Position numbers and translations under genes: made by a program. DNA of 64,000 bases, from NCBI GenBank assembly GCA_947034885.2, contig OX344756.2, positions 19,451,489 to 19,515,488 of the forward strand, given 5' to 3'. Positions within the stretch are counted from its first letter, which is position 1; each line of letters starts with the position of its first letter. A model generated the notes under the pieces. The model had not been told where the DNA came from. It worked only from the letters and a program-made list of their open reading frames with translations, and did no database searches. The stretch is from Thuidium tamariscinum (lineage: Eukaryota; Streptophyta; Bryopsida; Hypnales; Thuidiaceae). Shown here one piece after another: positions 8,386 to 59,962 of the stretch.

Positions 8386-9337
8386 TTAACCCCTAAAGGT
8401 TTTTGACTATGTTTTCACCAAAAATGCTCCAAAACTGCCATTTCTAATACAAGTGCAAATTTTTTTCTTAAAACACATTTTTGACTCATGTAACCATAGG
8501 ATCTTATAGTAAGGTGGTTTGTAAACATGTGGAAAAAAATTTCAGAATTTCCACTGTGTAGATTGCAAGATATAAGCATTTGAATTGACAAAAATTGTTC
8601 TTTTATCCCTGCGAAAATCCGGGCAGCTGCACTTCACAAGGTCACATTTGTGTGAAAAAAATTCAAAATGGTGGTTACTCTTTGAATTCATACTTCAATG
8701 CAAGTTGGCTACATTCTCAAAAAATTTCAAACCATTTGGAATTGTACAACATATAGGAAAAAATAAGTAAGTAGAAAGAAGTAAAAAATGAGCCAAAATA
8801 CTAAATTGTGAACATTTTATTCATGGAATTGAAAATTTTCAATCCCAATGGTTAAAATGTTGTAATAAAAAATCTACACCTTTTGTTTTTATTTTTTTTC
8901 AAAAATATGAAAATTGAATTAAATGAAGAATTTCAAACTTTTTTTATATTGTAGAGATTCTGTAACTCGCCGTAAACTACCCCAAACTCAAAAATCTTCC
9001 TAACTTTTGACTCATTGATCGGAATGGATTGATTCAAAGCTTAACATGTTTGTATAAACCTAAGGAACCAATTTGAAATTTCGCTTTTAAAAAAAAAAGT
9101 TTTTTGAAGAAGTTTTTTCAGCTGCCCGCGCTGTTCGCCGAATAAAGAAAACAACATATCCTGCCATAACTTTTTAACAGTGAAGTCAAAAGTTATGAAA
9201 GTTGTTGGCCTTAAAGCTACTCCTTGGACACACATTGTATCAAAATTTCAAAGAGAAAAAATAAAAACTCCATCCGTAGTGAGCTGCCCAAAAAATTTAT
9301 AATCTCAAAAAACGATGTTCAGGGCTTTAGGGGTTAA
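8386..9337. mobile_element. TTAA-flanked inverted-repeat element 1 (piggyBac-like, non-autonomous)
   Basis: The element is bounded by TTAA at 8386-8389 and 9334-9337. Its left end reads CCCCTAAAGG and its right end, reverse-complemented, CCCCTAAAGCCC. By eye it is homologous end to end, in opposite orientation, to the element at 39473-40404. For example, both carry CTCCAAAACTG followed by a TCATTTCTA-like stretch near one end, and a GGCAGCTGCACTTC block further in. No transposase is present. The TTAA target and C-rich tips are those of the piggyBac superfamily; that assignment is inferred. Confidence 0.75.
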
Positions 9338-9771
9338 ACCATCCCTATACTTAACTATGATTTATTGATTGTTTATTTTTTGAGATTTTGGTTTTAGATT
9401 TACATAAAATAGGGATTTTAAAGAGACCCAAAAATTGGAGGGACTTAATCTAAAAAAATGTAGATGATTGAAACATGATGTACAACCCTACTCACTTTAG
9501 TGGCTATTGATGTAAAGCAAAAATAAATATTTAAATAGTGTGCCTTGTGCCAATGCCACAATAAGAATTAAAATAAAAGATATTTTCTAATTTTTTAACT
9601 CATTGAAACTTTGAAATTCAATGAATTTTTCACCATGAGTCCAAATGCCTTGAAACCAAGCCCATGCACCCCTCCTCACCAAGAGCTTCCCGATGGTACC
9701 AAACACACCACCCAGAGATGCACGGTCTAGGAGATCTCAACGTGACAAACAAACAAAACAAACTACCTGTC

Positions 9772-10330
9772 TTAACCCTTTAGGGCCTAGCATGCCAATT
9801 TTGGTTCTTTTAAATTGAATTTTTGAAATTAGAACACTCTCTTGGCCTTAGCTGCTCTTGAGGTATGAACAAGATGTGAGGGCACGGGTATTCCACTTCC
9901 AATGAGCCATTAGCCATCAAATTTAGAACAATGATGATTTGTCTATGGCAATTTGAAGTTGGGAATTTTAGAGTTCCAAAATGCACTGTGGAACATGTTT
10001 CTCTATTGAATTTATTTGTGTATAACTAAAGAGAGGATGCCAACTTCACCATAATGTTCAATATAATGAACTCTATTTTCAATAAAAATTTCATGGTAAA
10101 GTGAGCTTTTTTGTAATTACTATGATTTTTCAAAGACATAAACTTTAAAAAATCATATAAATTTCATTTTTTTTCCAAAAATAAATTAAAAACCATATTA
10201 GATAGAAGATATGAATTCTTATTTGTAGAAAAATAATAATTTAGATTAAATTATAAAATTTTAATATGCAAATTTGATTTTAGAAAAATTCAAGAGGTTG
10301 CTTGGGGCTCCTTAGGCCCTAAAGGGTTAA
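9772..10330. mobile_element. TTAA-flanked inverted-repeat element 2 (piggyBac-like)
   Basis: TTAA lies at 9772-9775 and 10327-10330. The tips match as a 14-bp inverted repeat, CCCTTTAGGGCCTA, the cleanest terminal repeat of any such element in the window. The interior is AT-rich with no long frame. The ends resemble the other TTAA elements but the interior looks different, so it may be a separate subfamily. Confidence 0.78.
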
Positions 10331-12920
10331 GGTATAGATATATAGTGTGAAATGTGAATTAATTTTTATAGGTCCCCTTAAAATCCCTATTTAGTGTAGC
10401 TATTTGATGGTTTCAATGGCTTGGGGAGCCTTGACTTTTAAAATTCATAGAAATTGCATGTCTTATACAAAAATTCTAATTCTGTTTTACAATCATGATT
10501 TTCAATTTTTAATACTCCAAAAATATTTCTTCTAAAAAAAGTTGCTTCCATCTTCATTGAATTTCTTATTTAGACAATTCTAGATGGTTTCACCTTAAAG
10601 ACTTAGGTTTTGAAACAAAGTAAGTTAGAAATATACCGGGATCACAAATAATTTACTTTCGTTTCATCCCCAGAGGGAAAACGTGAGAACATGACAGGGA
10701 ACTTCATCTCTCTAAAACTCTCTTGGCGCACTAACTTCGACCTAATTTCGCTGCTTGAGAGTCGACTCCCCGATTTCGTGTGCATTTTCTGAATCGTTGT
10801 TGCTTGTTCTGTTGTGCTTAGCTTACTTACGGGTCACTGCTCCGGAGGACACCTTGTGTGCTCAGACTGACTCACGGGTTGGAAAATTGAGAAGGTTTCG
10901 GTGTAATTTAAGCTGGTGTCTGATGATTTTAACTCTCCCGGGTTCTTATAACGAAGAGTGATGTAGTGGAGCATTCCCTTTGATTTTATGTGAATTTTGA
11001 TATTTCTGTTGCTCAGAGAGTAGGTGATGGTAGTGAGAATTTTCTTGATCCACTTGATGATTCTCTTCCAGGAATGTATTTCAGGGAATCTCTTCTAGAA
11101 ATGTTGTTGACAGGATGTGTTTCCGTTTAGGTAGTGGAGTGATTTGTTATACCATAGAGCAAAGGTTCTTTTGACACCGAAATTTCGACGGCTTATCTTG
11201 TGTTTTGAAATATGATCAAGGACGAAAACAAACGGTGAAAAACAAGAAACAAGACATTTTTCGAAAGCGTGATGACGTATTCGATGGGAATCTCTACCAT
11301 GCTTCGAGTTCTTGAAAATGCTTGGTTCATGTTAAAGAAAATCTAAGGTAATTGAATGGAACAAATGCGCTCGTCGTGCATCCTGTACTGGACTAGGGAA
11401 TTTGCAACATGACAAACTTAATCCATGTTTACATATTGATTCGTAGTAATGGTGTAATTTTCACAGCTGAAAACATTGTCCTCCGCGTAATCCAAATGAA
11501 ATAAATCTTGAAACCTGTGGTTCTATAAAATTAAAATTCATCAATCGACAGCTCAGAAACAACCGCAATGAAATGATTATTTTCTCAGCTTGTGATCCCG
11601 CATTTGATCAGTCTACTGAAATTCTCAAAACATGGAATTTAGTCTAAAGCTTTAGACCACCGGAGCGCTATTCACAGAATTCATAAATGTGGACGCGTCG
11701 TTGTAGCAGATGTCAAGGGGACCTACTGCGAAGACACCTGAAGCGGTCCCCAGGATTTCTGCAAAACTTAAAACATCTCTTCGAGCTGTTACCTGAAAGT
11801 CCTTGTGGAAATGAGCGGAGTCGAAGATGATTCAACGCGGAAATGTCGACCATTACTTGGAACGATAGACGAGCGTTCTCCTTCTATCATAACCGTAACC
11901 CATGATGCGAAACAAGCCAGGTTAGAAACATTTTTATCCTCATTTTCAGAGAAAAATATGGGGTTAGGGTTGCGCCAAATTGACCGATTCCTAAAGGGAC
12001 AGCGCTCTTCATAGGAATCACTAAGTGACAATGCTTGCTATGCTCGTAGCCTGATCAGAATGTGATTAAGATGAGGATTCCTGTTATTTAATTATTGCCT
12101 TTACAAGGAAACTTAAATCCTTACTGAAGCTAGCCTCACTGGCGATGACGTTCAGCAATTCTTCCCCATGACGGTCTGAAAGTACCTGCGGTTACTACGA
12201 TTTAGGTTAGCGTCATCAACTTCAAATGAACCTGATTCACGGACTGTCATGAAAGTATGCTGGGGAGAATGTCAGTTCATGTTCCTTGTGCAATGCGGAA
12301 TTTGTGAGTGCCGTGTCGGATAGGTGAAGTATATAAAAAGCCGCAGGGAGAACAGGCTTATACTGTCTATTATCATGAGGACCTTAACATTACAACCACT
12401 GCTTCACACCATTGAGGAGTGATAGTCCTCAATTTATTCGCACGCATAAATTGACTTGTACGATATCTGAGCGTACTATATCCGAATGGACGAAATTCTA
12501 TCTGGGTCAAGGCAGTGAAAAACTACTCACTCATAATGTCAAGCTCATATTAAGCGGTAGCCAGTGTGATAGTCTTGAGTCTGCATGAGTGACAGGTTTG
12601 AAATAGTATGGAGTTATCAACTATTCGATTTACAGCATAATCGACCTGCGTTTCCATTCATTTGCATCTCAGGTGCTCAGATGTTAAAAATGTTGAGTTT
12701 GCCCATAGTTTTTTTTCACTCTCTGTTCTTGATTGTGGAAGAAAACTTCGAAATTGAAATTAAATAGTCAACTACGAGGTACGCTTGTGCGTGTCCGTCA
12801 TGGAGATCATCCCTGCACAGGCTGTCCTCGCTTAGCTGATATAGCCCAGGGGACTCTAGTGCGGAAGAAGGAACGTAAACCGTCCTTTAGGATTCAAATT
12901 GAGCGACGGGGGCTTCCGCT
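10331..12920. other. Less AT-rich region upstream of the GDSL gene, no recognised gene
   Basis: From about 10,640 base composition becomes clearly less AT-rich than on either side and stays so through the GDSL gene. Only short open frames occur (for example 10755-10961 and 11805-12014), and none resembles a known protein. It may hold the promoter, 5' leader and possibly an upstream intron of the lipase gene, or an old decayed gene. I cannot decide. Confidence 0.45.
12330..12340 (+). promoter_or_regulatory. Candidate TATA box of the GDSL gene
   Basis: GTATATAAAAA is a good plant TATA match on the coding strand. It is about 590 bases before the chosen ATG at 12921, which would imply a long leader or a leader intron. 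The link to the gene is inferred from orientation and position only. Confidence 0.35.
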
Positions 12921-18203: not shown

Positions 18204-19023
18204 TTAACTCCTAAGTGCCCAAGGCTTGTTTTGAGCTTCTTGGAATTTGCTCTAAGTTGAACAAAATGCCAACATTTTGATAAGTTGTATCAATTTTTTT
18301 TGAATTGTAACCGTACAAATTCAAACTAGACATGTTAGAGATTGCATAGGAAAGAAAACACAACAATAGCACTTATAGAGTGAAAGATTATAATGTTTGA
18401 CTATGGAGGTGTTAAAACTACAAAAGTGATGTAAAGTGTTTCTATCCTCTTTTGGCAAGTTAAATCTAAAAAGTTGGTGACCAAAAAAATATGAGGTGAA
18501 AGGGCCTAACATGCATAACTCCAATCAATTTATAGCTCCTCAAAATCTACTCTATAATTTTTGTAAATGAATTTTGAATGTGATTTTTTCTCCAAGATCT
18601 AGTGTATTTGAGGCTCATTTTCAAGAGCTCTCAATACTACAAAAAGTCAAGATTGCAAGAGGTACCCTTGCACAAAACACTAGTAGAAATCTGTGTTTGC
18701 CTCAACAAAATCTACTTGACGTGTTTGTTGAGGCAAACGCAAAAACTGCGTTGAAAAACGTTTTTCAACGCAGTTTTTGCGTTTGCCTCAACAAACACGT
18801 CAAGTAGATTGTGTTGACGCAAACGTAGATTTCTACTAGTGAAATCTTCTATAGAAAAATCACTATCATTCATTTTCCAAATCGGATTTTTGACACTAAA
18901 ATTAGACTTCTAAAAGAACTTTCCAAAAATATAAACTACTAAAAATAGCAATTTGGTTAGGTTTATTTAACTTCAAAGTTTTCCAAACACCAGATTCTGG
19001 TGCCTTGGGCAGTTAGGGGTTAA
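18204..19023. mobile_element. TTAA-flanked element 3, interrupted by a CACTA foldback
   Basis: TTAA lies at 18204-18207 and 19020-19023. The left tip is CTCCTAAGTGCCCAAGGC and the right tip, reverse-complemented, CCCCTAACTGCCCAAGGC. It belongs to the same family as the elements at 57721-59161, 57928-58749 and 59520-59962; all share CCCAAGGC or a close variant after the tip, and similar subterminal sequence. A 164-bp CACTA foldback sits inside at 18678-18841. Confidence 0.75.
18678..18841. mobile_element. CACTA-type foldback MITE nested in a TTAA element
   Basis: The ends CACTAGTAGAAATCT and AGATTTCTACTAGTG are inverted, and 3-bp AAA duplications flank the element (18675-18677, 18842-18844). 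Nearly the whole length folds on itself with a handful of mismatches, several of them C/T changes. The terminal CACTA and 3-bp duplication are those of the CACTA (En/Spm) superfamily. It is non-coding and would depend on a transposase in trans. Confidence 0.88.
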
Positions 19024-19066: not shown

Positions 19067-19070
19067 TTAA
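19067..19070. mobile_element. Orphan right tip of a TTAA element
   Basis: GGGGCTTTAGGGG is followed directly by TTAA at 19067-19070, only 44 bp beyond the right edge of the 18204-19023 element. A possible left partner is TTAATCCCTAAAG at 16821, but the link is unproven. Confidence 0.4.
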
Positions 19071-22020: not shown

Positions 22021-23168
22021 GATGCAAAATTGTTTAGTCGTTGAAGTTTTATGTTGCGTTCATCCACTCCATTCGGCAGCAGCGATTAGCTGAAAATCGA
22101 TCGCGGCCGTAGGATTTTCGCGACGCGGCTCCATCGTGGCCGTCTCTGTCGCAGCCATCAGCTCTTTGTCAAATCAGGATTTAGCCTGTCATCATCTCCT
22201 TCCTGCTGGGGTGATTAGCAGAGCTCCTCCTTGATGCGCAGGGGTTTAGCAGCTATTGTTTAGATGCGCCGTAGGATTTTCTGAATTGCAATTTGCATTC
22301 TGCAATTGTCTGCAATCTCTGGTGTACAATTGTACATTGCACAACTGACTTCATTACAAGTGCACAACTGCACATTCAATGAATTTTGAGTTTCTCAGGC
22401 CGCTAGGCCGCTGCTTCTGTGCTGTGCTACGGTTGCCAATACTTGCGATTGCAACGTTTTCATTGTGTGACGCCATTTTGAGGATCACCGATTTCCTAGT
22501 GCACAAAGCCGCCAATTTCTGTCTGGGGTGAAGACGTTGGGCAATGGACACTTCAGCTCACGTACTGGTCTTGAAATAGAGGCTACCTGGCGCTCTAGTG
22601 AATGCGGTGTGTGATTCTGAAATTGGCGGCAACACGGGTGCATGCTTGCACCAACTGCGGTTTTGTAGAAGTGTGGAACAACCAGCGATTCTTGCCAAAC
22701 CCGCATTGTACAACATATAAGTGATCGGGTGTGCGAGGGATTCAGTGCATGAGTGCATACAGCGTGCTTTCGATCAGAATTTTGCGTAACAAGCATTTAG
22801 ATCTTCCCGCAGGCCTGCACTTTACTTCCCCATTTTTTTTTGCTTTGTTGAATTACTAAATTGTTGCATTGTTGTGCTTTACTTTGAAGGGTTTTGTTGT
22901 GTTTTATCTCTACTTCCATAGTTTGTGCAATACTGCTCTTGGAGTTTGGGGGCGTGGATGTAGGCTGCCAATCAAGAATGGCGCCGAGGTTGAAATTGCC
23001 GGAAAACTTCCGTGTGAGGACGTTCGGGTCGTCGCGCAATACACATGGAATCACGAAGTACCTACCTGCGCCTGAGGAGGTAACGCGCATCTCGGAGATA
23101 AAATTAACCGATTTAGTCGCTGGCCCTTTTCCACGCTTTTCCTCGTTGTCGGAGACAACTTTGTCTTA
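22021..23168. other. GC-richer region before the hAT pseudogene
   Basis: GC content rises sharply from about 22,030. There are short overlapping frames on both strands and clusters of TGCACAACTGCAC-like words near 22,320-22,375. It may be the 5' part of the hAT element, whose borders I could not find. No protein is recognised. Confidence 0.4.
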
Positions 23169-25865
23169 GTGGAGGCTCCTCTTGATCCAGCCCCCGACGT
23201 TTCGGAGGAGAAGTTGAAGGAGAAATCTGCGACGTACAAAAGGAGGAAAATTTCTCCGACCACTGTGACAAGGAGGTGGCAGGAGGTTTGGGCTTGTAAG
23301 TTCACTTGGGTAGAAGGGGAGTTCGATTCCACAAGCAATCTCACCGGAGTTGTGTGCAAGAGTTGCAACTCTGTAACTGGCAGACGAAAAACAATTGTTC
23401 TGAAAGGTGACAACCTTGAGAAGCACGAGGGGAAGCGAATGTGCAAGTTCGATGGTGAGCCTTTTCCAAATTTGAAGAAGGGAGATACATATGTCAAGCA
23501 AGATTGTAAGCATGTCCAATTCAACAAGGTTTGGGTGGGGCGACGGCTAAACGGCACTGTTGCGGATCAATTATTGGCTGGCTGGAGGGCGAGGCGAGCA
23601 GAAAGGCAGTACAGTTCGCAACTTTGTTCCAGGTTCTGGATTCGGGTCGTCCCATGTGCGATTATGAAAGAGAGCAATTTCTTTTGAGGCATTTGAAGGT
23701 TAAAAATGTGCCTAGAAAGCACTGGTCTGAAACATCGGGATGGGAAATGAGTGAACATCTTCATGGATGTGTTATGGCTGCTTTGAAACTTGTGGTACAG
23801 TCGGCCAGATTTGTATCCATCAGCGCTGACGAGGTGACGGCAGTTGACAACACCAGTTGGATTGGGGTTCACATTTATGTCGTTGACGACTGGGAGAGAA
23901 TCCCCCACTTGCTCCATTTGTCTTGTGTATCTGATTGTGGGACTGCTGATCACCTTACAGATGTGATTATGCATTCCCTACTTGGTGAGGAAGGTCTCAC
24001 ACATGACCAAATCGCTACCAAACTTGTGTCATTCGGGGCAGATGGCGTGAGCACATTCCAGGGGTCTAAAAATGGGGTCTTTACCTAGATTAGAGACAAA
24101 TGGGCTCCGTTTTGTCTTGGCGCAAGTTGTGCGAGCCATCGTATCAATCTCGTAGTTCAGACTCTGTCGAACTATCCCATGGTGTCTCGTTTGGAGGCAC
24201 TTTGCCAATCGTTGTATGCCTACTTTTGCAGGAGCCACAAACGCCACACTGAGTTACAAAAACTAGCCGATCTCATGGAAACTAAGGGTAACAAAATGCT
24301 GAGGAGCATGGACACTCGGTGGATTTCTATGCAAAGCCCAACTCAACGCATATTGTCGGAATACAAGACACTTTTGGTCAAGATGGGTCTTGACATGTCG
24401 GGGTCTGCTGGCAACAAACCATCTGTTGCCGCAGCGGCCAACTTTGACTATCTTGCCGACATTGAGGTCTTACTATCTCTATCTTGTTTTATACCAATGT
24501 TGAATGTGGTACATTGCCTTATCAAACTATCATAGTCTCGAGATGTGTTCATTTGTGATTTCCTGCAGTCGGTGAAGCTTTGCCAGTCCGACTTGGCTCG
24601 GCTCTTTGTTGACCAAACAACGGCATTCACGACAGCAGAATTCAAACGTTATCAGGAGTTCATTTCCCTTACCTCAGCTGAAATTCCTATGGAATGGAGG
24701 CAAATGCCTGAGAGTACTGGTGCTTTCCACCTACTGTTCAATTTTGGATGCACTAATGTGCTGGCCCGCTCCCACTGCAAGGTTACGGGTAATCATGTTT
24801 TCGTCACACAGGAGGTTTTTGAGCTAACACAAGCAAATATTCAGCGGCAGTTTGCTGGTTAGGCCCTACACCGCATTCATTTTTTGTTTTGTGATTTTTT
24901 ATTAAATTTCCCATTTTTTTTGTTGACCCTATAATCCTACATTCTTCTTTTTAGGTTGTGTTCATTTTTAGACTCCAGCAAGTGTAGTAGAATGAGGTTA
25001 TGATCTTCACTTCATGTAGGATATAAATCACCTCACTTCTTAGATACTTGCTTGTTTGTCCTATAATTTGTCACAGGCTCACAGCATTTTCTATTTCATA
25101 ACAGTGTAAGTTGTAGTGTTGATTGTTTTGTGGTCAATTTCTTTTCTATTTTGTTTTGAGACTTTAACTATTGTTACTTGTTAGTCTTAGTCTTGTTTCA
25201 TCATTGTTTGCTGATTTTGAATGAGTTTATATAGTGCAGTTCTTGGTTCTTTTAGTGTTTTTGACCTCTCTGCTATCGGTCTGGCAGAGATCGCCCATTC
25301 TCTTTCCAGCGAGCTTGACAGGTGCTTTCCGCAACAGGAGCTACTTGATGCTTTCGGAATAATTTACCCCCAATATTGGAAGCAGCCGGGGGCAGATGAA
25401 AGCTTTATTCATCATCTAGCAATCCTGAAAAACTTCTATTCTTACCTGAGAGTTCTGAATGCAGGCAAGGCGCAAGAGGGCCAATCCAGCTATACGACAC
25501 CTAAGCTATTGTCTGCTTCAAATTTAGATAACCAACAAGGGTTATTTAAATGCACAATGAAAGCTAATTGCGATGCAACTTGTGCTTCTGTGTCTGATGT
25601 CAATCTGGTGATCCTGCTTTGGCGGAGCTTATCTCAGTCCCATCACTTGAAGAAACTCATTTCGGAATACTTCAAGGTTGCCGAAATTGGTTGCTGCTTG
25701 GTATTGGGGTCAGTAGAGGATGAGCGCTGCTTTTCCACGCTCAAGTTTCTCAAGTCCTGCCACAAAAATCCGATGGGCAAACATTTGCCACTTGTGGTGA
25801 GGATATTTGGACAGAAGTATTATACTCTGGAGAATTTTCCTTACAAACAAGCCATCGAGTCATGA
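23169..25865 (+). pseudogene. hAT-superfamily transposase, decayed
   Basis: The encoded protein would cut and paste a hAT transposon. The N-terminus (23169-23580) has a BED-type zinc finger: TRRWQEVWACKFTW, then VVCKSCNSVTG and a downstream His. Near 23,580 the frame must shift to reach SRKAVQFATLFQVL, CDYEREQFLLRHLKV and the RNase-H-like part VSISADEVTAVDNTSW and LVSFGADGVSTF. In-frame stops follow at 24086-24088 and 24533-24535, with clear homology beyond each (GASCASHRINLVVQTL; VFICDFLQSVKLCQSDLARL). After an AT-rich gap (24863-25220), which may be an intron, 25221-25865 carries the C-terminal dimerisation segment with EDERCFSTLKFLKS. One frameshift and two stops mean it is dead. The type resembles the KIAA1586/ZNF862-like hAT group. 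Confidence 0.82.
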
Positions 25866-37349: not shown

Positions 37350-37579
37350 TTAACCCTTAAATGTCGAAGAGGACGTTTTGCGTCTGCCGAATGAGAGAGA
37401 ATCTTCCCTTATAGAATGGAAGTGCAACTATTGATCCTCAGTTTTAGGGGTGGAAAGGGGAAATCTTCTACATGGCTTTGACTTCCAATGAATATATTTG
37501 GCTTTTCCAAAGTAGATGATGTCACACAGAATCAAAATGCATGATTTCCACGGTCACTAGTCCGTTGTTCAAGGGTTAA
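37350..37579. mobile_element. TTAA-flanked short element 4 (230 bp)
   Basis: TTAA lies at 37350-37353 and 37576-37579. The tips are CCCTTAAATGTCGAAG and, reverse-complemented, CCCTTGAACAACGG. The interior is homologous to the element at 49690-49916: both have GAGAATCTT, GGGGTGGAAA, GGCTTTGACTTCCA and GATTTCCACGG in order. Confidence 0.68.
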
Positions 37580-39472: not shown

Positions 39473-40404
39473 TTAACCCCTAAAGGACCAACATGCCTTT
39501 TTTGGCAACATAGCGATTTTGGGCAGGTACGTGTGGCTACAGATTTTCATATTTTGGAACCAAAATTTAATAGAAGGTGTGGACGAGGAGTATCTTCAAA
39601 GCCCAACAATTTTCGTGACTTTTGACTACATGGTTGAAAAGTTATCGCATGAAACGTTGTTTGTTTCTCAACTTGGGCAGTTTGGGCAGATCAGAAAAAA
39701 TCACTTTTTTTGGAAATAAAAATTTGAAGTTGGTTTTATAGATTTATATATACATGTAAAGCTTTGAATCATTCCATTTGGATTAATGAGTCAAAAGTTA
39801 TGAAGGATTTTAGTTTGCGGGTAGTTATGGATTCTCTTCTCTAAAATAAACTTTGAAGTCCTTTATTTTACTCAATTTTCAATATTTTTGAAAAAAAATA
39901 AAAACATTGGTGTAGATTGTTTATTACAACATTTGAACCATTGGGATTGGCATTTTTCAATTCAATAAACGAATTGTTACCATTACTGTATTTTGAATCA
40001 TTCTCTACTTCTTTCTTCTTACTATTTTTTTTGTACATGTTGTACAATTCCAAATGATATGAAAATTTTCAAGCATGTAGACAACTTGAATTGGAGAATA
40101 AATCCAAAGAGTTGCAACCATTTTGGACATTTTTGCATACAAATGTGACCTTCTGAAGTGCAGCTGCCTGGATTTTCGCATTGGAAAAAAAATGATTTTT
40201 GTAACTTCAAACACTAATATCTTGCAATCTACATGGCGGAAATTTCTGAAATTTTTTCTACATCTTCCCAAACTAGTGCACTAAGAGATCTTACGGTTAC
40301 ATATGTCAAAAAATGTTTTTTTTCTGAAATTTGGTAGCTCTCCTAGAAATGACAGTTTTGGAGCAGTTTGGTTGGAAACATAGTTGCGGTCCTTTAGGGG
40401 TTAA
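39473..40404. mobile_element. TTAA-flanked element 5 (piggyBac-like, 932 bp)
   Basis: TTAA lies at 39473-39476 and 40401-40404. The left tip is CCCCTAAAGGACCAACATG and the right tip, reverse-complemented, CCCCTAAAGGACCGCAAC; the 13-bp repeat CCCCTAAAGGACC is exact. It is a full-length relative of 8386-9337 in opposite orientation. Short frames occur at matching places in both copies (39519-39719 here, 9041-9235 there), with shared words such as TFD before a VxKL. Confidence 0.8.
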
Positions 40405-41211: not shown

Positions 41212-41224
41212 TCCAAAATTGATC

Positions 41225-41640
41225 CTGTTGAATCCAGCATCAATAAGTTTCATCAAATTTCTTAAGCATGTAGCCACCTTGGATTGAAGAATTAATCCAA
41301 AGAGTTACAATCATTTTGGACATTTTTTCATAAAAATATGGCCTTTTGAAGAGATTTTTTCAATTGTAAGAAAAAGATTTTTGTAACTTCAAACACTAAT
41401 ATCTTGCAATCTATACAACAAAAATCTTTGAAATTTTTTCTACATCTTCTCAAACTAGTGCACTAAAATCCTATGGTCCAAAAATGTTTTTTTTTCTTCT
41501 AAAATTTGGTAGTTGTCCTAGAAATGATAATCTTTTGAGTGCTTTTGGTAGAAACATAGTCATAAATTTTCAGGGTTGCCTATAGCCAAGTGAATCTGTC
41601 CATTGTCCATTTTCTGGACATCGAAGCAGTGAGGGGTTAA
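41225..41640. mobile_element. Right-hand fragment of a TTAA element
   Basis: Homologous to the right half of 39473-40404: GCATGTAG, ACACTAATATCTTGCAATCT and CAAACTAGTGCACTAA occur in the same order. It ends GTGAGGGG followed by TTAA at 41637-41640. The left half is missing, next to the 40673-41211 foldback. Confidence 0.65.
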
Positions 41641-42819: not shown

Positions 42820-45800
42820 ATGTCGGTTTTGAAATCAGCAGCACGGACACTGCTGGGTGCTCGAACCAAGTGCACCGCTCGCTCGTCGACTTCGGCTCTT
42901 CTCCGAGAGCATGGCAGCAACCCAGTTCCTGCTCAGATCCCCAGAACAATCAGGTCTGTCAATGAATCTCATAGTTTTCTCTAAGAGCTAGATTGAAAAA
43001 GGGGTTACTGTTCCTCTGTTTCACAAGGAGATTTTTTGGTTCACTACGTAGTGAACTCACTACCATTACCATATTCAAAGTGGTAAAATCAATACTATTA
43101 CCACTTCCAAAGTGGTAATGGTAGTGAGTTTACCACTTAGTAAACCCCAAAAGTCTCCCTGTGTTTATTACAACGGATTTAATCACTTGGCTAGTTTGCA
43201 GTATCAATGATCCAGCATTCTATAGGGTTTCTTCCTCAAGGTCTTATGCTTTGATGTCCCCTCATTCTAGCTATAAGGTGCTCTTCAAAGTCTCTCAAAA
43301 TTACAAATTCTATGGAGCAGGCGAGTAGGTTTTGTAACAAGGCCGGAATGGTGGTGTTGACAGTCTTACTAAGAGTCTAATTCAGAAAATAATGATAATT
43401 AAACCATCCGCTTAATAAGGGTTGATATCATTACGGCTTGGTATCTTTAGGGGTTTGATCTTTGGTATTATCAATGTTTTAGGGTCTACTATACTTTGGA
43501 TATGGCTTTCTCGCCTTTCATACTGGATAGAATTCTGAGTGTGCTTGGTGGACTCTTCTGTCGCTTCTTCTGTTCTTAAACCTGAACTTAATGGGCTATG
43601 GCTGTGGTGGAGCAGCTCGCTCTCAAAGCAAGGAGCTACGGGGTTGGATAAAATGGAGAGGACATCACCGTCAAGGAAAATGAGTACACTTCAGATTCCG
43701 AAAGCGCCAATTGTCCAAGGAATGCTCACGGTGGCAGAATTGCAAGAACTTGCGAGAATCAAGAAAATCGACACCGTCATCGTTGGGCTCACGGATTGCT
43801 ATGGTCGGCTAGTTGGAAAAAGGTCCCGCACCTCCCCAATTCAAATTCTAGTCTCAGTTCATGTGGGATTGCCGGTCAGTCCAGAATTGTTCAACAAATT
43901 AATGACCCTGATTGAATTAGGGTTTTGGAAATAGGGTCAGAGTTCTATGCGTTCGAGGAGAATTCGAGTATGTAAATTCTTTTGGGTTTGATGTGCAGAT
44001 ACACAGCCGATTTTTTCTTGGAGAGTGCTGTGGACGATGGGACGCATGCTTGCTCTTATCTTCTGGCGACTGATATGGACATGGAGCCAGTTCCCGGGTA
44101 CAAGTTCGCTAGCTGGGAGGCTGGCTATGGTGACATCCACCTCGTTCCTGACATGAAGACACTGCGGGTGGCAAGCTGGTACTATTCTGCCTAAAATTTC
44201 CAGGTTCTTAATGTGTTTTCACCGTCATGGCTGGTTTGTACCATACAGGAACCGGAGGAGGAAACTCCATGTGAGCTCGGGGTTTGTTCTTGCAGGTTTA
44301 TGCCAACAAATTGACTCGGTTTCTATGCTTGCAAAACTGATCCATGGTTCTAATAGTTGAATTTTGGTATGATGTACTAAAATTTGTACGATTGCAGGTT
44401 GGAAAAGACGGCTTTGGTGCTGTGTGACGTGGTTCAGGATGACCACAAGCTAGCTCCTCATGCTCCACGCTCCATTTTGCAAAATCAAATGAAGGCTGCA
44501 CAAGATGTGGGTGCGTTCACGCCCATGGCTGCTTCGGAGCTTGAGTACTTTCTTTACAAGGACACATACGAAGAATCCAAGGTAAGGCACTCGATTTATG
44601 TGTTCCTTCTATTTTGAAGATTTAATACTTCACTTCAAAAAGAATTCTTAGAATCCTTGGCATACAACTTAAGCCCTTAGCGTTGCACAGTCCATATCCG
44701 TGAACAGAGTGCTTTGGCGGTGATGTTTTGTCCTAATAACTCGAAAATACTGCTTGAATCTAAAATAACCACCCTTTTTTTATGACCAATTTGATGAAAT
44801 TGAGGTACGTGATGTAATTTCATAAAGATATAACCAAGTCTATGCAAAAATTCGAAAGGATTCGGGTGTCAAAGGGTTCAGAGAGTTGATATTTTTCTGG
44901 TGTGCAGAATAAAGGCTACATGAATCTTAGACCTGCGGGTTGGGTACGGGAGGACTATCACATTTTCCAGGGAACTCGTGGGGAATATTTTCATGGTACA
45001 CGCAAGCTAGCCTTCATCTGTTTTGTTAACATTTCGTTTTTTTGTTTCAGGAAGTGTTTGAGAATGTTTTCTTTTCTTTTACCTACATTGAATTTGACTT
45101 TTATATGGTTGGGCTGACCTTTACATACCCCCTTCTCTTGACAGGTCCTGCGAGGCGTCATTTAGAAGCTTCTGGGGTTCCTGTAGAGAACAGGTAACTT
45201 GGAATTTCCTCTATTCTATATTAGCAGCTGCTATGTTATGAGAGATTCATAGCGTGGCTGCACTCCAGATGCACCCTATTTCATTTTAGGGGTTAGGGCT
45301 CAATAATTTTAGGTAGCAGCAAACAGTAATGTAAGAACTTACTCAAATTGCAGATGTTGCTGGTCTTTGATGCAATTGATCTCCTCTCGTTTGGTCCAGA
45401 GCCAACAAAGGGCATCTATATTTTAAAATTGCAGTTAAGAGTTGAACTTTGAGGTTTTAGTTATGATCCTAAATGCATCCTGTTGTTGCTTGCTTGCAGC
45501 AAGGGAGAATTTGGGCTTGGACAGCACGAACTGAACGTGAAATACGCGGAAGTTCTGGAAATGGCTGATCGCCACAGTGTTTACAAGCAGGTATGCCTTA
45601 CTCAATGACCATACTTGCATTCAAGTTGAGACATTAGAATCCATGAGATTCAGAAATGAAATTACCTTTCCATAAAGTAAACCAGATAACATACCCGACT
45701 CAAGAGGTTATGTAGTCCAATTTATAAAGGTCTATCACTGTTTATGACTAGGATAACACAACAATCTTCTTTGTTTTTGGCAGTGTCTAAAGGAGCTTGC

Positions 45801-47271
45801 AGATTCTATGGGCGTTTCTGTTACCTTTATGGCCAAGCCAGACGCATCACAACCAGGCTCTAGCTGCCACATTCATCTTAGTCTTTGGAAGGATGGGCGT
45901 AACATATTTGCTGGGGATAAATTGCTGGGCTCCACGAAATGCAGGTTTGAAATTATGTTCTATTCTTGTAGTTTAATCAATCTTTCTAAAACAGTTGGAA
46001 GTACAAAGGGTTTAACCACTAATAGGTGCACATGTTTATTTAAGTTCTTACTTCCTCTAATACATATGAAAGAAGACATTTCACTAGTATTTCAGCAGCT
46101 CAATGGGTTTGTGCAAACCGCTTCGTAGTAATTAGGTTGTGAGCTATGCTTTTACACGTCCAATTTTAATATGCGTGGACCAGATGAACGGTTCAAGAAT
46201 TATCACATCCTAACCAAAATATGCACTTTTTTTTCGCTTTCTGAAGATCTGTTTCATTGTTGACTTGCAGTGATGAATTCATATGGTTCTTGGGCGGATG
46301 GATGAAGCACACTCCAGAGCTCATGTGCTTTTACGCTCCCAACGTTAATTCCTACAAGCGTTACGTGTCAGGCAGCTGGGCTCCCACGCAGATAGCTTGG
46401 TAGGTTTCCCTTGAATCTCTAACTTAACTTGCTTCATGATTTCATTCAATTGCTGCAAAACACACTACTGTAACTTAGTTGTTTTCTATTTCAGTTTTTG
46501 AATCGATTAAATTTCAATTCATTTATTAAAGCATACTAAACACATGATCCTTGGATGAAACAGGAGCCGGGACAATCGAACTGCACCTTTCCGTGTCCTT
46601 GGGTCTGGAAAATCCTTGCGCATCGAATGCCGACTGCCCGGCGCCGACTGCAATGTGTACTTGGCCTTTGCTGCTGCTCTTGCTTCTGGAATGGACGGCA
46701 TTCGCAACAAAATTGAGCCTCCACCCCAGCTGGAAGGGAATGTGTACTTTGCCAAGGATCTTATGACGATTCCTCAATCACTGGTATGGACCCTGTCGTA
46801 AAACCCTCATCACAACAAAGATATATTTTCACCGTAGTCCCCCAATCTAAATTTGTGTAATGAATTAATAATTCTGATTGAATTTGTAGATGCTAGCCAG
46901 TTTTTTATGGTTGGTTTTGTGTGTTGGATTTAGGGTTGAAACTCTTTGATTGAAAGATGATTCTAGTATGCGTAGGAAACAGGCCATCCCTCCTCCATCT
47001 CTTGCTAGAATCAGATTTCATTATCTCATTCAACTGTGCATTTGTTTAGCCAAAGTAGATTGTTGTTTTGGATATTACTCTGATTTTCTGTCACAATCGT
47101 TGATGTGAACAGGGAGCAGCTACAACAGCTTTCAAGAACAGTGCATTTGCCAAAGAAATGCTGGGAGAGGATGTTCACCACCATTACCACCACTTCTTTG
47201 AATCTGAGCTTCTTGCTTACCAACAAGCAGTCACAGATTGGGAAAAAGCTCGATATTTTGAGCAAATTTGA
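42820..47271 (+). CDS. Type I glutamine-synthetase-fold ligase, gamma-glutamylpolyamine synthetase-like
   Basis: Would ligate glutamate to ammonia or, more likely, to an amine such as putrescine, using ATP. Exons: 42820-42953, 43616-43822, 43999-44178, 44398-44581, 44908-44995, 45145-45193, 45500-45590, 45784-45944, 46271-46399, 46564-46783, 47113-47271. All are GT-AG with agreeing phases, giving 533 residues. The catalytic core starts at ATG 43653 (476 residues). Motifs: VIVGLTDCYGRLVGKR, DPSQ-type loop KPDASQPGSSCHIHLSL (about 329-345), NSYKRYVSGSWAPTQIAW (about 391), SRDNRTAPFR (about 409), and RLPGADCNVYLAFAAAL. These match bacterial GlnA3/PuuA-type enzymes, not the plant type II synthetase or the amidohydrolase-fused nodulin/FluG form. 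The first exon encodes an Arg/Ser/Ala-rich leader (MSVLKSAARTLLGARTKC) resembling an organelle transit peptide; its join to exon 2 fits the phase but is inferred. The gene is intact. Confidence 0.85.
43022..43163. mobile_element. Foldback MITE in intron 1 of the synthetase gene
   Basis: CACAAGGAGATTTTTTGG at the left pairs with the right end, reverse-complemented ACACAGGGAGACTTTTGG. Pairing continues through GTGAACTCACTACCATTACC against GTAAACTCACTACCATTACC. It is 142 bp, non-coding, and lies between exons 42820-42953 and 43616-43822, so it should be spliced out. Confidence 0.7.
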
Positions 47272-49689: not shown

Positions 49690-49916
49690 TTAACCCCTAA
49701 ACGACACACATGCCATATTTTAGTTGATGAACAAGAGAATCTTTTTGTTTAGAACAGAAATACAATTTTTCATCCTTAGAATTGGGGGTGGAAAAGGAAG
49801 ATATTCTATAGGGCTTTGACTTCCAACAAGAGCTTTTGAATTTTGAGGAACCAATGATTTCTACAGTATCAAAATTTAAGATTTCCACGGCCATCGGCTT
49901 GTCCTTTAGGGGTTAA
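49690..49916. mobile_element. TTAA-flanked short element 6 (227 bp)
   Basis: TTAA lies at 49690-49693 and 49913-49916. The left tip is CCCCTAAACGACACAC and the right tip, reverse-complemented, CCCCTAAAGGACAAGC. It is the sister copy of 37350-37579, and its ends are closer to the 932-952-bp elements, linking the short and long forms. Confidence 0.75.
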
Positions 49917-52111: not shown

Positions 52112-55100
52112 TCAATTTCTTATAATTGCATTATATGCATTTATGACAAAGACATTTTTTACTTTAATTACTCTTAGCAATCGAAGACAAAACAATGCAA
52201 GGACAAGTGTACATATCATTCCACCGCTTCCAGTTGTAAACATGGTAAGTGATTTATACCTCCAATAATCTTTTGGTACAATTGATACTGCAGCACTAAA
52301 GTATGCACAAATTAGAAAGACAATTGACATGAATAATACAACCACCGCCGCTTGAACACTTTTTTGTGCAACTTTGACCTCACGAAGTATACCTTCATGT
52401 GATATGGGCAAAAATGGAATCATGGCTAATATGATTGATGCCATTGAAAGATAAAATGTTAAATTATCACAAAACATAAATGCTTCAACTGAAGGATGAT
52501 TAAATTGGGCATACCCATTTAACCAATCTTCTACTTCACCACTCGCAAATCCAAGAGGTGGCTGAAGAGGCCCAACAAATGATGCAGTTGCTACTAAAGC
52601 TGCAGTAACTGAAACTACATTTGCAGCAGCAAAGAGATTGTTTAAAGATTCTTGAGTTTGTTTGGTAAATTTTTCATACCACCATTGACGAACTTCTTCT
52701 GGAGTGGCCGCACATAATTCTGGACAATAGCCATCAAGGTTTGTTTTATTCATATCAAGACCGGCTTGCATCAAAAGCTCCATACAACCAATAAGTTCTG
52801 AAGAACGTTTATTTTTTCTTGGTAACTTATGTCGAAAATGGTCAATGTTTATATAATCAACTGAGGTGAAATAATATATTTCATTGAATTCTTCATCAAA
52901 TGCCCTTGTAGCATAATGTAATGCAGTGTTGCCATGTACATCAGTTGCAAATGGATCAATTCTTTCATTTGCCAAGAAAATTTGGACAGCTAGAGGATTT
53001 CCACTAGCTATTGCTAAACTTATAGCAGGTATTTTTGAATGTAAATCTTTTTTATTATGAACATTAATAACACATTTATCAACAAGATCTAATTCCTACA
53101 CACATAAGTAAAAGAAAAGAAAATTTAATAAAATTCAATGTTAAACAACATTCTTATATAATATGTATAATTTTGTATAAATAATCCGCTAATTAAAAAA
53201 ATAATTTTTTACAAATATTTTTATAGTAGTTGCCACTTGTTACATGTATATGAATACTCATACTTGTATACTTCTCATATAGTTTTTCAATTATTTATTT
53301 GCTATATTTGTTCAATGCACTAAATTTTATAACTTGACTTATGTAATTTTTTAATCCAAAACATTGAAAACATTAGAAATGGTATCATGTTGATTTAATT
53401 ACTTTCAAAAATAATTGTACTATTTGAGTATGGCCTTTGAAAGCAGCTAATTGGAATGGTGTAAGTTTAAAAGTATGATGAGAATGTTCACATAATGCAT
53501 TGAGATCAAGTTTGTGCATATCTAGTATGTCAAAATCCAGATTGTAATTTTTACGAGCATTTAAAAGAGCCTCAACAACATTACGGTGGTTATAAAGAAC
53601 TGCAATGTGGAGAGCAGTAACTCCTGCTGATATATGCAATTGTGTACTTATGTTTTGATGCTTTGAAAATATGTCCCATTGAGTAGATGTAGTAGCATTC
53701 AAGTTTGTTCTCAAATCTTCAGCAAATACTCTCACAACTATAAAATTACCTTGTGATGCTGCACGATGAAGTGATGTTCTACTTGCAAAATCTCCAATAT
53801 TGAGTTGTAATACATTTGGACAATGAAAATCAATAATTTTAAAAATAGTTGTCATTTGATAATCTTCAATATCAAAGTTATCCGCTAAAACATGTAATGG
53901 AGTTCTACCATTACTATCAAGAAGATTCAATATGTATTGTATTAAATCCTTTCTCAAACATGTACAAATATTTTTCAAAAGTAACATCCCTTCGTCACCA
54001 ACATATATACTTCCAAACAATTGGTGTAAAACAAACTCATTCCCCCATATCATGGATTGTTCAATACTTGCACTTTCGTCACTAGTAATCAAATATCGGC
54101 TTGCTCGAAGTGTTTTAAATTGTAATCTATCAAACCAATTCCAATTATGGCCTTGTTTTACTCTTTTTAAAATGGGGTCAATTAATTCTCAAATCTTTTC
54201 TAGATTTTCAATTGCTTTAGTTGTGTCATTGAAATCTTTACTCCAATGAGCTTTGAGTGGAATTGATGTATTTGCAAAATCATGCATATGAATGGAATCA
54301 ATCATAGAATATTTTTTTGCACATTCAAGAATTTCAATGATGTTTTGATTTCCATTGATAGCAGCAAGTTGATATGCATTCATTCCAAGCTCAGTGTCTG
54401 GGACCTCAAGAAGTTGTCGAATTTTCATGTTTTTTTTTGCGGTTTTAAAAGCAACATTTAGAAATATTCTAACTAGAACTTCAGAATTTACAAGGATTGC
54501 AATTGTTAAAGAAGTTTTCATTTGCTTGTTGATTTCAAAAACTAAATCAGGCTTCTCTTCTAAAAATCCATACACCTTTTTGAACTCTTGCATGGTGATT
54601 GCATCAAAAAATGCATTGATTGTATTGTTTTCATCAAATTCATCATGATTGGTGAAAATTTGTAAGCTCGATCTTTTTAAGCCCCAAAATTCTTTTTCTA
54701 AACCATCAACTTGATGATTATTGCCATTATTTTTGGATTGTGTATCCAATAATTAATTTCTTGAATTTAATAAAAATTCTGTTAGCTTTAAGGATATTGT
54801 TGCCAAATTTGAATCCATTCGTTTAAGCATCTCCAATAGATGGTCATAAGGTCTTGGTTGAGTAGAAGACCTTGGTGGCAAAATAAGATCTACAAACATT
54901 TCCGCTACTCCAGCCTCTACTGCAAGTTCTTTCAAACTTCCTTCTAAAATTTTCATTAGAATTCCATTGATATATTTATTTTTTTGAAATATAGTATATA
55001 ATTTATTCACAATGAGGTATTGTAAGTTGCTAAAATCAAATGATAAATCCAATCTAGAAGTGACTATTCAACTTGTGATATTCAATCTTTCTAAATTCAA

Positions 55101-55994
55101 ATTGATTTTTCTTCATATAATGTATATGATATTAAATGTATAAACGATATAACAAATATAATTTTCTTTGGATCCACATAAAGGCTTTTTTTCAACTTTT
55201 TATCATACTTGTCCTACAACAATCAAAAGATTTATTAATGAAATTCATATTTTAAGATTTATTGAAAATATTATATAAAATTAATTATTGTGAAGTATTG
55301 TTAGACTTTTAATGTACAACCTAATTCAAATTTCTACTTAAATACACTATATTGAAATAATTACATTAAAAATACCAGTAAAATGCATATGACTATTAGA
55401 CCTACCATTTTTGTCAAGTATTTTAGTGGAACTTGCAAGTGTTGTATATACAATAATAAGTCTTCATTTACATTGATAATCAAATGAATCAAATTAACAT
55501 GAAATCTCTGGTTCAAAAAGAAAACTATTATAATTAAAAATCAATAGAAAGACTAATGTTTACATTCTAAAAAATCACTTTTAAGCTTATTATGATATAT
55601 GTTAATTGTTATTGCCTAATTATACCTTGAAAATGGATGTAATTAGATTTTAATATTTTTAAATTTATTTGTAGTTAAATTTGAAAATTTCAAGGATTGA
55701 CAAACTTTAGTAATTAGTGGAGAACAAGTCAAAATGCCTTTACAACAAGTTTAAGAAAATTAGAATAAAAAATTATTTGTTAATAATTTTTATTAAATTA
55801 AAATTTCTAAATTTTTTTACTAATTGCAATGATACCAAGTTCTAATGCATAACATGGTTCAAATTTTCAACTTAGAATTCACTTATAGTGAGTAGAATTG
55901 TTACCTTGTAAATTAAGACTTGCATTTGAGTTGGGAATCCCGTTGATAGCCATACATAGCCGTCAATTAAAATTTGCATTATTGCAATTTTCAT
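52112..55994 (-). pseudogene. Ankyrin-repeat protein with C-terminal PGG membrane domain, disrupted
   Basis: Plant ankyrin/PGG proteins are membrane proteins of the ACD6/ITN1 type linked to defence or stress; that role is only by family. The last exon, 52112-53095, is intact. It has the ankyrin unit DVHGNTALHYATRAF, then the PGG start NVVSVTAALVATASFVGP and about four hydrophobic spans. The previous exon (from 53390 upward, donor GTAATT) holds further repeats (SNGRTPLHVLADN; GVTALHIAVLYNHRNVVEAL; LTPFQLAAFKGHTQIVQLFL). Its frame is cut by a TGA at 54189-54191 and a TAA at 54753-54755, with coherent protein in the same frame on both sides. Near 55,060-55,110 the frame also breaks. Possible upstream exons are 55905-55994 (start MKIAIM) and 55406-55507 (NVNEDLLLYIQHLQV), which join in phase 0. 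Most likely a recent pseudogene; sequencing errors are the alternative. Confidence 0.75.
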
Positions 55995-57720: not shown

Positions 57721-59161
57721 TTAATCCCTAAATGCCCAAGGCACCCAAAAGTGATGTCAAAGAAACTTTGAAGTTAAATAAAACCTTACCAAATTTCTAT
57801 TTTTGAAAGATTCTTTTTGAAGTCTAGTTTTAGCATCAATAATCCGATTTTGGAAATGAATGATTATGATTTTTGTATTCAGGATTTAGTGCAAGGGTAC
57901 CCATTGCAATCTTGACATTGCATAGTGTTAACCCCTAAGTGCCTAAGCCTTGGCAAGTGTATTTTTCTTATGAAAAAAGAGCATTGGCTTCTAGTAATCT
58001 CCAATGAACAAAAAATTTCTTTTTTCAAAATCCAACCACATATATGTTTTAAGAGCTTATATATTAGTCTACAAACCAATTTTGAGTGCAAAATTGCAAA
58101 GGAGTTGTGAGATTATAACAAAAGAAACATGTATTCTCTATTTTGAGTATGCTACTTCTTCCCACAATGTTTTAGAAATTTGTATATTAAAGTTTTTTGG
58201 GATTAGTGGTGACATGAACAAATACAAATAGTTTTAGCACACTAAAATGTACTTTCAAAAAACTTAATTTCGCTTGAAAAGATATCAAATTCATTATACA
58301 ATCCACCTTGCAATTGTAGTAATACAAACTTTCTCTATAACTAAAAATTGCAAACATCTTCAAATCAACACTTGCATGTTGAAATTTTCAATGGTGAAAG
58401 TCATGAAAATACTTTACACTTTCTACTGGGACCATTTTCAAATCATTTGGACAAGTATAATTTCTTAGATCTCAAATCAAGTGAAATTGGCAAGTTGTGC
58501 ACTAAAGTGGAAAATGAAATAAAAATGGCAAGCTTTACTCTCCACTAATATTATTTACATGCCTTTGAAGACCCCTAAATAATCAAATATTTACTTTTTT
58601 TTCTGTGAAAAATGAAAGTTTTCAATAATTAACACAAAAAATTGCCCAAAAAATTTTCAAAACGGTCAAAGGAATTTAACTACCCATTCAGATTTGAGCT
58701 GAAATTTTCTGCACGACCATATATGGTCACTCAGGCAGTTAGAGGTTAAGGATTCTTGGAAATGAGCCTCAAATACACTAGATCTTAGAGAAAAAATCAC
58801 ACTAAAAATTCATTTAAAAAAATTGTAGATTTTGAGAAGCTATAAATTAATTGGGGTTATACTTATTAAGCCCTTCAACCTTGTATTTTTTTGGTGACCA
58901 ACTTTTTAGATTTGACATGCAAAAAGAGAGATCAAAGATTTTCATAGATTTTACACCCTCATGATCAAACATTAAAATCTTTCAATCCATAAGTGATGTT
59001 GTTGTGTTTTCTTTTCCTCTGTCATCTCTAACATGCCTACTTTGAATTTGTATGGTTACAATTCAAAAAAATTGATTCAACTTATGAAAATGTTGGATTT
59101 TTGTTCAATTTAGAGCAAATTCCAAGAAGCTCAAAACAGGCCTTGGGCATTTACGGGTTAA
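57721..59161. mobile_element. TTAA-flanked element 7, split by a nested relative
   Basis: TTAA lies at 57721-57724 and 59158-59161. The left tip is TCCCTAAATGCCCAAGGC and the right tip, reverse-complemented, CCCGTAAATGCCCAAGGC. Removing the nested element at 57928-58749 leaves about 620 bp that resemble 18204-19023 in opposite orientation: CTCAAATACACTAGATC, then ATTGTAGATTTTGAG, then ATGTTGGA-like sequence before the tip. Non-coding. Confidence 0.75.
57928..58749. mobile_element. TTAA-flanked element 8, inserted into element 7
   Basis: TTAA lies at 57928-57931 and 58746-58749. The left tip is CCCCTAAGTGCCTAAGCC and the right tip, reverse-complemented, CCTCTAACTGCCTGAG. It is the same length class (822 bp) as 18204-19023 (820 bp). 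Host element sequence resumes directly on both sides, as expected for insertion into a TTAA. Confidence 0.72.
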
Positions 59162-59519
59162 TAAAATACAACTATAGTATCGTGTAGTTAAGTAGTTAAC
59201 TTCCTCAATATACATCTTAAAGAAAATCACAAAAGTAAAAGGTAATGTTGGATGAAAGAAAAAACTAATATACTTCTTGCTTCTAATAGATGATGTTGAG
59301 TATTATTGATTCCAATGATGAAGATGTTATAGTATATAATGAGTATCCTTTTCCTTGTTTTCATTTGGAAATTTTCATAATGGAGTTCAAAGACACTTTT
59401 ATATATTTTTTCTATTTACAATGTTTTTTACTGCTTGCAAAATATCACTTCATATAACTTTAACTTCATTATTTCAAATTGCATGGTTCAAATGTCTTTG
59501 ATTAATTAGGTGTCAATAT

Positions 59520-59962
59520 TTAACCCCTAAATGCCCAAGGCACCAAAATCTAGTGTTTGCAAAACTTTGAAGTTAATGAAAACCTAACCTAGTTTCTATT
59601 TTTTGTAGTTTGTATTTTTGAAGAATTCTTTTTGAAGTCTACTTTAAGCATCAAAAACATGATCTTGAAATCTTTGACTACAATTTTTCTATTCAAGATT
59701 TTTTGCATGGCTACGCATTGCAATCTTGACTTTCTTTAGTATTGACAGCTCTTGAGATTGGACCAAACATCATAATCTTTCAATCCATAAGTCATATTGC
59801 CTTGTGTTTTCTTTTCCTAAATGATCTCTAACATGTCTAGTTTGAATGTCTACGGTTACATTTTTTTTTAAATTGATAAAATTCATCATAAAGTTGACTT
59901 TTTGTTCACTTTAGAACAAATTCCTAGTAGCTCAAAAAAAGCCTTGAACATTTAGGGGTTAA
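59520..59962. mobile_element. TTAA-flanked element 9 (443 bp)
   Basis: TTAA lies at 59520-59523 and 59959-59962. The left tip is CCCCTAAATGCCCAAGGC and the right tip, reverse-complemented, CCCCTAAATGTTCAAGGC. It is an internally shortened relative of elements 3 and 7. It keeps GCATTGCAATCTTGACTTT and CTTTCAATCCATAAG but lacks the CTCAAATACACTAGATC part. Confidence 0.78.

What the first reader, a model, noticed from the sequence alone, without database searches (positions are those of the whole stretch)
8386..59962. At least nine piggyBac-like TTAA elements in one land-plant window
Nine elements (8386-9337, 9772-10330, 18204-19023, 37350-37579, 39473-40404, 49690-49916, 57721-59161, 57928-58749, 59520-59962) each have TTAA directly outside both ends and inverted tips beginning CCC or a one-base variant, mostly CCCCTAAA. 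Exact TTAA targets with C-rich tips are the hallmark of piggyBac. I do not know of this superfamily being a common, abundant component of land-plant genomes. The elements fall into at least three interior families: about 950 bp/230 bp with AAAGGAC tips, about 820/440 bp with AAATGCCCAAGGC tips, and the 559-bp one. This suggests several waves moved by one kind of transposase. None encodes it here.
Basis: partly seen in the sequence, partly recalled or inferred. Interest (0 to 1): 0.8.

Follow-up and report, generated by a model that had tools for sequence, protein, structure and literature searches.

The report
Abundant, recently active piggyBac transposons in moss
The window's short repeats are non-coding passengers of piggyBac, a jumping-gene family best known from animals, and this plant genome (probably a moss) also holds many piggyBac transposase genes, including one element whose near-identical copies must have jumped very recently.

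Summary
All nine elements exist (coordinates include the TTAA at each end). Exact TTAACCCCTAAA tips: 9 in the window, 0.06 expected. Element 57721-59161 is split by the nested one at 57928; interiors form five families, not three. For the nested insertion, the closest of six related sites holds a single TTAA. Genome-wide 5,916 of 6,683 CCCCTAAAGGAC tips follow TTAA.

The missing transposase exists: all 116 scored hits (of 659 first-look candidates) match the piggyBac profile DDE_Tnp_1_7 at E 1.4e-70 or better. Of 13 further transposase 3' flanks read, 11 hold a TTAACCC tip, against about a third of random stretches. A 5,096-bp element has 11 copies, all TTAA-flanked at unrelated sites; nine are identical over the 2,484 bp compared. 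A subterminal box near +106 is shared by 8 of 12 transposase ends and 6 of 9 window elements.

Verdict: piggyBac is supported. The superfamily is known; abundance with recent movement in a land plant was not found in the open-access papers searched. Which transposase moves which miniature family is inferred.

The parts
8386..9337 (-). E1, 952 bp, ~930-bp family (non-coding miniature piggyBac); TTAA included in the coordinates; strand relative to E5
   Evidence: subterminal box 107 nt from its left end
9772..10330 (.). E2, 559 bp, tips TTAACCCTTTAGGGCC (18-bp perfect inverted repeat); no relative in the window
   Evidence: tip resembles that 3' of transposase locus L042, TTAACCCTTCAGGGCC
18204..19023 (-). 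E3, 820 bp, family C; holds an 82/82-bp hairpin at 18678-18841; probably nested in an old 930-bp-family element ending at 19070
37350..37579 (+). E4, 230 bp, family B
39473..40404 (+). E5, 932 bp, ~930-bp family; genome search: 7,814 first-look candidates, 40 scored, the 39 other than itself 91-98% identical
49690..49916 (+). E6, 227 bp, family B
57721..59161 (+). E7, family C, 207 + 412 bp, interrupted by E8
57928..58749 (.). E8, 822 bp, nested in E7; empty site with one TTAA seen in the closest relative
59520..59962 (+). E9, 443 bp, family C

Best explanation
The nine elements are non-autonomous (miniature) piggyBac-superfamily DNA transposons of a land plant, most likely a moss. Larger elements elsewhere in the same genome (two read end to end: 5.1 and 5.6 kb) encode a DDE_Tnp_1_7 transposase; it recognises the CCC tip and, at one end, probably a subterminal box near +106 (TGTAACCGTAGGA-like), cuts the element out and inserts it at TTAA, which ends up on both sides. 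Shown: TTAA flanks, one single-TTAA empty site, transposase genes, TTAACCC ends, the shared box, nine copies of one element identical over the 2,484 bp compared. Inferred: that these transposases move the miniature families, that the box is a binding site, that excision is seamless, and that the youngest element can still move.
For: Tips and TTAA in 9 of 9 elements, tips far above chance. CCCCTAAAGGAC occurs 6,683 times genome-wide (reversed-pattern control 11) and 5,916 of these follow TTAA (control 0). TTAACCCCTAAATGCCCAAGGC occurs 692 times (control 0). Single-TTAA empty site for E8. 659 first-look candidates for PF13843, 116 scored, 116 match at E 5.7e-80 to 1.4e-70; 0 of 14 control genomes, which the tool does not describe further. 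Pfam finds only DDE_Tnp_1_7 in the 1,023-aa frame; the only two PDB sequences at E 0.01 or better are piggyBat 9c0f (3.4e-27) and piggyBac 6x67 (1.1e-22); the three catalytic stretches align with piggyBat. TTAACCC tips in 11 of 13 transposase 3' flanks, against 33% of random 2,301-bp stretches of the sample and 30% of the window. 11 of 11 copies of the 5,096-bp element have TTAA on both sides, identical 40-bp ends and unrelated flanks; 9 have the top score and 2 four bits less. Box AACC at 106-107 nt in 8 of 12 transposase 3' ends and at 105-107 nt in one end of 6 of 9 window elements; 17 of 56 ends of 28 miniature elements have it at 105-108, mean 0.92 per four-position window, at most 5 elsewhere (the copies are related, so not independent).
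Against: A tip within 2.3 kb is not rare in this tip-rich genome, and L041 and L045 of the 13 flanks are close relatives. Two of 13 flanks (L033, L037) show no TTAACCC tip, and 4 of 12 ends (L031, the youngest element, and L034, L035, L039) lack the box at +106, as does the one 5' end read and window elements E2, E4, E6. No element was found that carries both a transposase and ends matching the interior of a window family; the best is L043, which matches E1 at 73% over 83 bp in register. Of 16 junction-spanning matches from 32 elements tested, only the six at the E8 site are informative. No transposase was found in the window.
Confidence: 0.95

Rival explanations
1. The elements belong to another superfamily that uses TTAA or a target nested in it: Kolobok or Sola3 (TTAA), PIF/Harbinger (TAA/TTA) or Tc1/mariner (TA), with the extra bases part of the tip (targets recalled).
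For: From filled sites alone, TA or TAA plus a fixed outer base cannot be told from TTAA. No profile of these superfamilies was searched.
Against: Tips of the same kind and the same subterminal box lie at the ends of DDE_Tnp_1_7 genes. 5,916 of 6,683 CCCCTAAAGGAC tips follow the full TTAA; a TA or TAA target would leave an outer base free. The closest empty site holds TTAA.
Confidence: 0.03
2. The miniature elements are piggyBac-like but old fossils that nothing moves any more; only the 5.1-kb element is young, and it arrived separately.
For: Fourteen full copies of the 930-bp family in the window and sample are 12-22% from their majority consensus. The 5,096-bp element lacks the shared box at both ends and no scored relative exceeds 71% identity.
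Against: For E5 the 39 other scored copies, on C1 to C10, are 91-98% identical, so part of the family amplified later than the sample average; these are the best 40 of 7,814 candidates, and none is above 98%. Many other transposase frames have no stop inside the domain.
Confidence: 0.35

Closest known systems
piggyBac superfamily (Trichoplusia ni piggyBac, Myotis piggyBat; PF13843)
   Same: TTAA target, CCC tips, DDD transposase domain, cysteine-rich C-terminal stretch, unequal subterminal sequences at the two ends (the last two recalled for the family)
   Different: Host is a land plant; the two elements read are 5.1 and 5.6 kb with a long frame before the transposase domain (domain at 533-932 of 1,023 aa), against about 2,472 bp for a typical element in PMC10813416 (passage); very many non-coding copies
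piggyBac-type MITEs, including those named for angiosperms
   Same: Short, non-coding, inverted tips
   Different: Here transposase genes of the superfamily are in the same genome; PMC10004981 names PiggyBac among seven angiosperm MITE superfamilies in the one passage that holds the word
PiggyBac annotated in the fern Ceratopteris (PMC6890710)
   Same: A land plant
   Different: There the repeat table reads 1,230 copies, 122,417 bp, 0.00% (passage); here the families seen cover 9.3% of the window and 13.9% of a tip-rich 200-kb sample

Membership tests
piggyBac superfamily | TTAA target site, duplicated | tested here: met
   9 of 9 window elements, 11 of 11 copies of the 5,096-bp element, one single-TTAA empty site
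piggyBac superfamily | Tips beginning CCC (CCCTT the most conserved motif in PMC10813416, passage) | tested here: met
   here mostly CCCCT or CCCTT; one-base variants at one end of E3 (CTC), E7 (TCC) and E8 (CCT)
piggyBac superfamily | DDE_Tnp_1_7 transposase in elements with such tips | tested here: met
   not encoded by the nine window elements themselves
piggyBac superfamily | Catalytic aspartates | tested here: met
   stretches tvDEs, tTDNffts and GVDtaDQ align with piggyBat; which residues are catalytic is recalled
piggyBac superfamily | C-terminal cysteine-rich domain | tested here: inconclusive
   C-x2-C ... C-x2-C ... C ... C ... H pattern seen by eye in two lineages; no profile or structure run
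piggyBac superfamily | Subterminal repeats bound by transposase | tested here: inconclusive
   fixed-distance box at one end in 6 of 9 elements and at 8 of 12 transposase 3' ends; binding not testable
piggyBac superfamily | Seamless excision | not testable with these tools
   needs an excision assay or accession comparison
PIF/Harbinger or Tc1/mariner | TAA/TTA or TA target with free outer base | tested here: not met
   5,916 of 6,683 tips follow the full TTAA
Kolobok, Sola3 | their own transposases | not tested
   no profile searched; tips of this kind sit at DDE_Tnp_1_7 genes instead

The most novel reading that the evidence does not exclude
A native, still mobile piggyBac system in a land plant: a 5.1-kb autonomous element that burst very recently (perhaps after horizontal arrival, since no scored relative exceeds 71% identity), in a genome where older piggyBac lineages spread thousands of miniature copies over roughly a tenth of the sequence sampled.
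Probability: 0.5. Interest if true: 0.8.

Novelty: new member of a known kind. Interest (0 to 1): 0.62.

Why it matters
[quoted passage not shown] PMC10004981; passages). A land-plant genome with abundant, diverse and recently moving piggyBac widens its known host range and makes horizontal transfer into plants testable. It may also give a plant-derived transposase for footprint-free excision in plants, where an animal-derived piggyBac has been used (passages), and a natural case in which one superfamily feeds many miniature families.

Tried and rejected
Kolobok, Sola3, Harbinger and mariner readings were considered and set aside once such tips were found at DDE_Tnp_1_7 genes; no profile of theirs was searched. 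Pairs of transposase genes in opposite orientation a few kb apart looked like composite elements; the one pair read (C8:23932256-23943795) is two elements inside an inverted duplication, 99.9% identical over 5,638 columns, that runs about 21 bp past the inner tips: a segmental duplication or an assembly effect, not a composite. Pairing 83058 with 84176 in the sample was wrong: by BLAST the inner element is about 83058-83555 inside an outer 930-type element, but no TTAA was found at its other end. Ten of the 21 open frames of at least 120 aa in the window were scanned with Pfam: no transposase. Species: I first thought of Sphagnum or a liverwort; LEAFY is present and its exons carry aspartates at two places that I recall as moss-type; not proven.

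Literature: native piggyBac in a moss was sought (open-access full text only; one search listed 30 of 37 papers, one search listed 12 of 13, one search listed 20 of 56). I judged by titles and word counts and opened passages of a few. The Niphotrichum moss paper has only the verb 'piggybacking' (passages). In one search the word count for piggyBac is 0 in the listed Physcomitrium transposon paper and in the Sphagnum, Pohlia and Ptychostomum genome papers. Bouallegue 2017 is not held and was not read.
Full report
OBSERVATION. The nine elements are present with TTAA and inverted C-rich tips at both ends (9 of 9). The stated coordinates include the TTAA. Exact TTAACCCCTAAA tips: 9 observed (one of them, at 19070, outside the nine elements), 0.06 expected; one mismatch 17 against 0.26; two mismatches 29 against 5.42 (50 simulated sequences each). 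A blind search for any TTAA-flanked inverted pair is less telling: 10 pairs against a mean of 2.35, with 7 and 9 pairs for the words AATT and TAAA. Element 57721-59161 is interrupted by 57928-58749, leaving 207 + 412 bp. By BLAST the interiors form five groups: 8386 with 39473; 37350 with 49690; 18204 with 57721 and 59520; 57928 alone; 9772 alone. A truncated relic of the first group lies at 41255-41577.

TARGET SITE. With E8 cut out and one TTAA kept, the flanks align through the junction with six related elements. In the closest one (C1 sample, 89.0% over 236 columns) the site reads TAGTG-TTAA-GGACTC, a single TTAA; four others read TTGA and one differs. Scores against E3 are best with one TTAA (177), against 169 with none and 173 with two; against E9 70, 66 and 66. 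The other 10 of the 16 junction-spanning matches, from 32 elements tested, are 67-75% identical and say little. In window plus sample, 14 of 15 CCCCTAAAGGAC follow TTAA and one ATAA. Genome-wide, 5,916 of 6,683 do (reversed-pattern controls 0 and 11).

ABUNDANCE. The window is G000:C8:19451489-19515488 in a genome of 363,211,507 bases and 19 contigs. The families seen cover 9.3% of the window and 13.9% of a contiguous 200-kb sample, C1:5980001-6180000 (930-bp family 3.4% and 11.1%); reversed control 0. The sample was chosen for its many tips, and the queries include copies from the window and sample, so 13.9% is not a genome mean. A search with E5 had 7,814 first-look candidates (not all confirmed); 40 were scored, and the 39 other than E5 are 91-98% identical, 38 of them over at least 1-931 or 2-932 and one over 1-913, on C1 to C10; one further piece is 80% identical. 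The family-C tip TTAACCCCTAAATGCCCAAGGC occurs 692 times exactly.

TRANSPOSASE. PF13843 (DDE_Tnp_1_7) gave 659 candidates at first look; 116 were scored and all 116 matched, E 5.7e-80 to 1.4e-70, on C1 to C10; 0 of 14 control genomes rang. None of the 116 lies in the window; the nearest is at C8:19757729. The 1,023-aa frame of L031 has this domain only (5.9e-79). Its only PDB relatives at E 0.01 or better are piggyBat and piggyBac, and the DDD stretches align with piggyBat. A second lineage (L066 with L035) keeps the first and third stretch and TD in the second, and has a similar cysteine-rich C-terminus.

LINK. Besides L031 I read about 2 kb downstream of the domain at 13 of the 116 hits (L033-L045). 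Eleven of the 13 show a TTAACCC tip, L033 and L037 none; L031 has one too. As a control, 33% of random 2,301-bp stretches of the sample and 30% of the window hold such a tip on one strand; 11 of 13 is well above this, though L041 and L045 are close relatives. For two elements both ends are fixed by comparing copies. Tips include TTAACCCCTAAACGCCCAAGG (L036), TTAACCCCTAAGTTCCCAAGGC (L043; compare E3 and E8) and TTAACCCTTCAGGGCC (L042; compare E2). In 8 of the 12 transposase 3' ends an AACC inside a TGTAACCGTAGGA-like box starts 106-107 nt from the end; L031, L034, L035, L039 and the one 5' end read (L032) lack it. In the window the box starts at 105-107 nt in exactly one end of E1, E3, E5, E7, E8 (degenerate) and E9, and is absent from E2, E4, E6. 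Over 56 ends of 28 elements, 17 have AACC starting at 105-108; the mean over four-position windows is 0.92 and the highest elsewhere 5; these copies are related, so the count overstates independence. E1 and L043 also align in register over 83 bp at 73%.

RECENT MOVEMENT. The element C8:19755117-19760212 (5,096 bp) has 11 copies over the 2,484 bp searched, 9 at the top score and 2 four bits lower, on C1, C2, C5, C8 and C9; 40 of 90 candidates were scored and no other exceeds 71% identity. All 11 have identical 40-bp ends, TTAA on both sides and different flanks; one lies in what looks like the TTAA at the end of a 930-type miniature element. I did not read the interiors of the ten other copies, so identity is shown only for the 2,484 bp and the ends. 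Such identity means very recent transposition; horizontal arrival is one explanation, survival of a single old copy another. A second element, 5.6 kb with TTAACCCTTAAATGACCC at both ends, exists as an inverted pair at 99.9%.

HOST. A PGG-ankyrin frame lies in the window and LEAFY on C4; both are plant families by recall. LEAFY carries D in DLYEQC and MRDYVHC, which I recall as the moss type. Moss is therefore probable, the species unknown.

LITERATURE (passages only). [quoted passage not shown] PMC8086355 and PMC10813416 mention plants without detail. PMC10794571 lists PiggyBac among plant superfamilies. PMC6890710 tabulates 1,230 PiggyBac copies in a fern. PMC10004981 lists PiggyBac among angiosperm MITE superfamilies. 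PMC5505980 says the moth piggyBac had yet to be tested in Physcomitrella. Six searches listed no paper whose title or opened passages report native piggyBac in a moss; listed papers were mostly not opened, and subscription papers are not covered.

VERDICT. The piggyBac reading is right, with five rather than three interior families and one nested element. It is a new member of a known kind in a surprising host. What remains inferred is which transposase moves which miniature family, the role of the box and present-day activity.

Noticed in passing
18678-18841: Near-perfect hairpin inside E3: two 82-bp arms, 95% complementary, no spacer; the BLAST alignments to E7 and E9 break there.
   Followed up: partly
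23076-25865: A run of adjacent + strand open frames looks by eye like a decayed hAT-type transposase; no Pfam family reached E 0.01 for the four frames scanned.
   Followed up: partly
43539-46128: Probable exons of a glutamine-synthetase-type gene: the frame at 45757-46128 matches Gln-synt_C (3.8e-15); the frame at 43539 was judged by eye only.
   Followed up: no
52112-54752: Minus-strand ankyrin-repeat gene: the frame at 52112-53095 matches PGG and ankyrin families; the upstream frames were judged by eye only.
   Followed up: no
G000:C8:23932256-23943795 (L066, L035): Two 5.6-kb piggyBac elements, 99.9% identical, head to head with 309 bp between their tips; the duplication runs about 21 bp past the inner tips. 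Several other transposase pairs also lie close together in opposite orientation and were not read.
   Followed up: partly
L031:526-1380 and L066+L035 joined:6888-7697: An upstream open frame of 270-285 aa in two piggyBac lineages, weakly similar around LDENYLISLPK / LDDRHLLSLPR; the L031 frame has no Pfam match, the other was not scanned. Perhaps a first exon or an extra N-terminal domain.
   Followed up: partly
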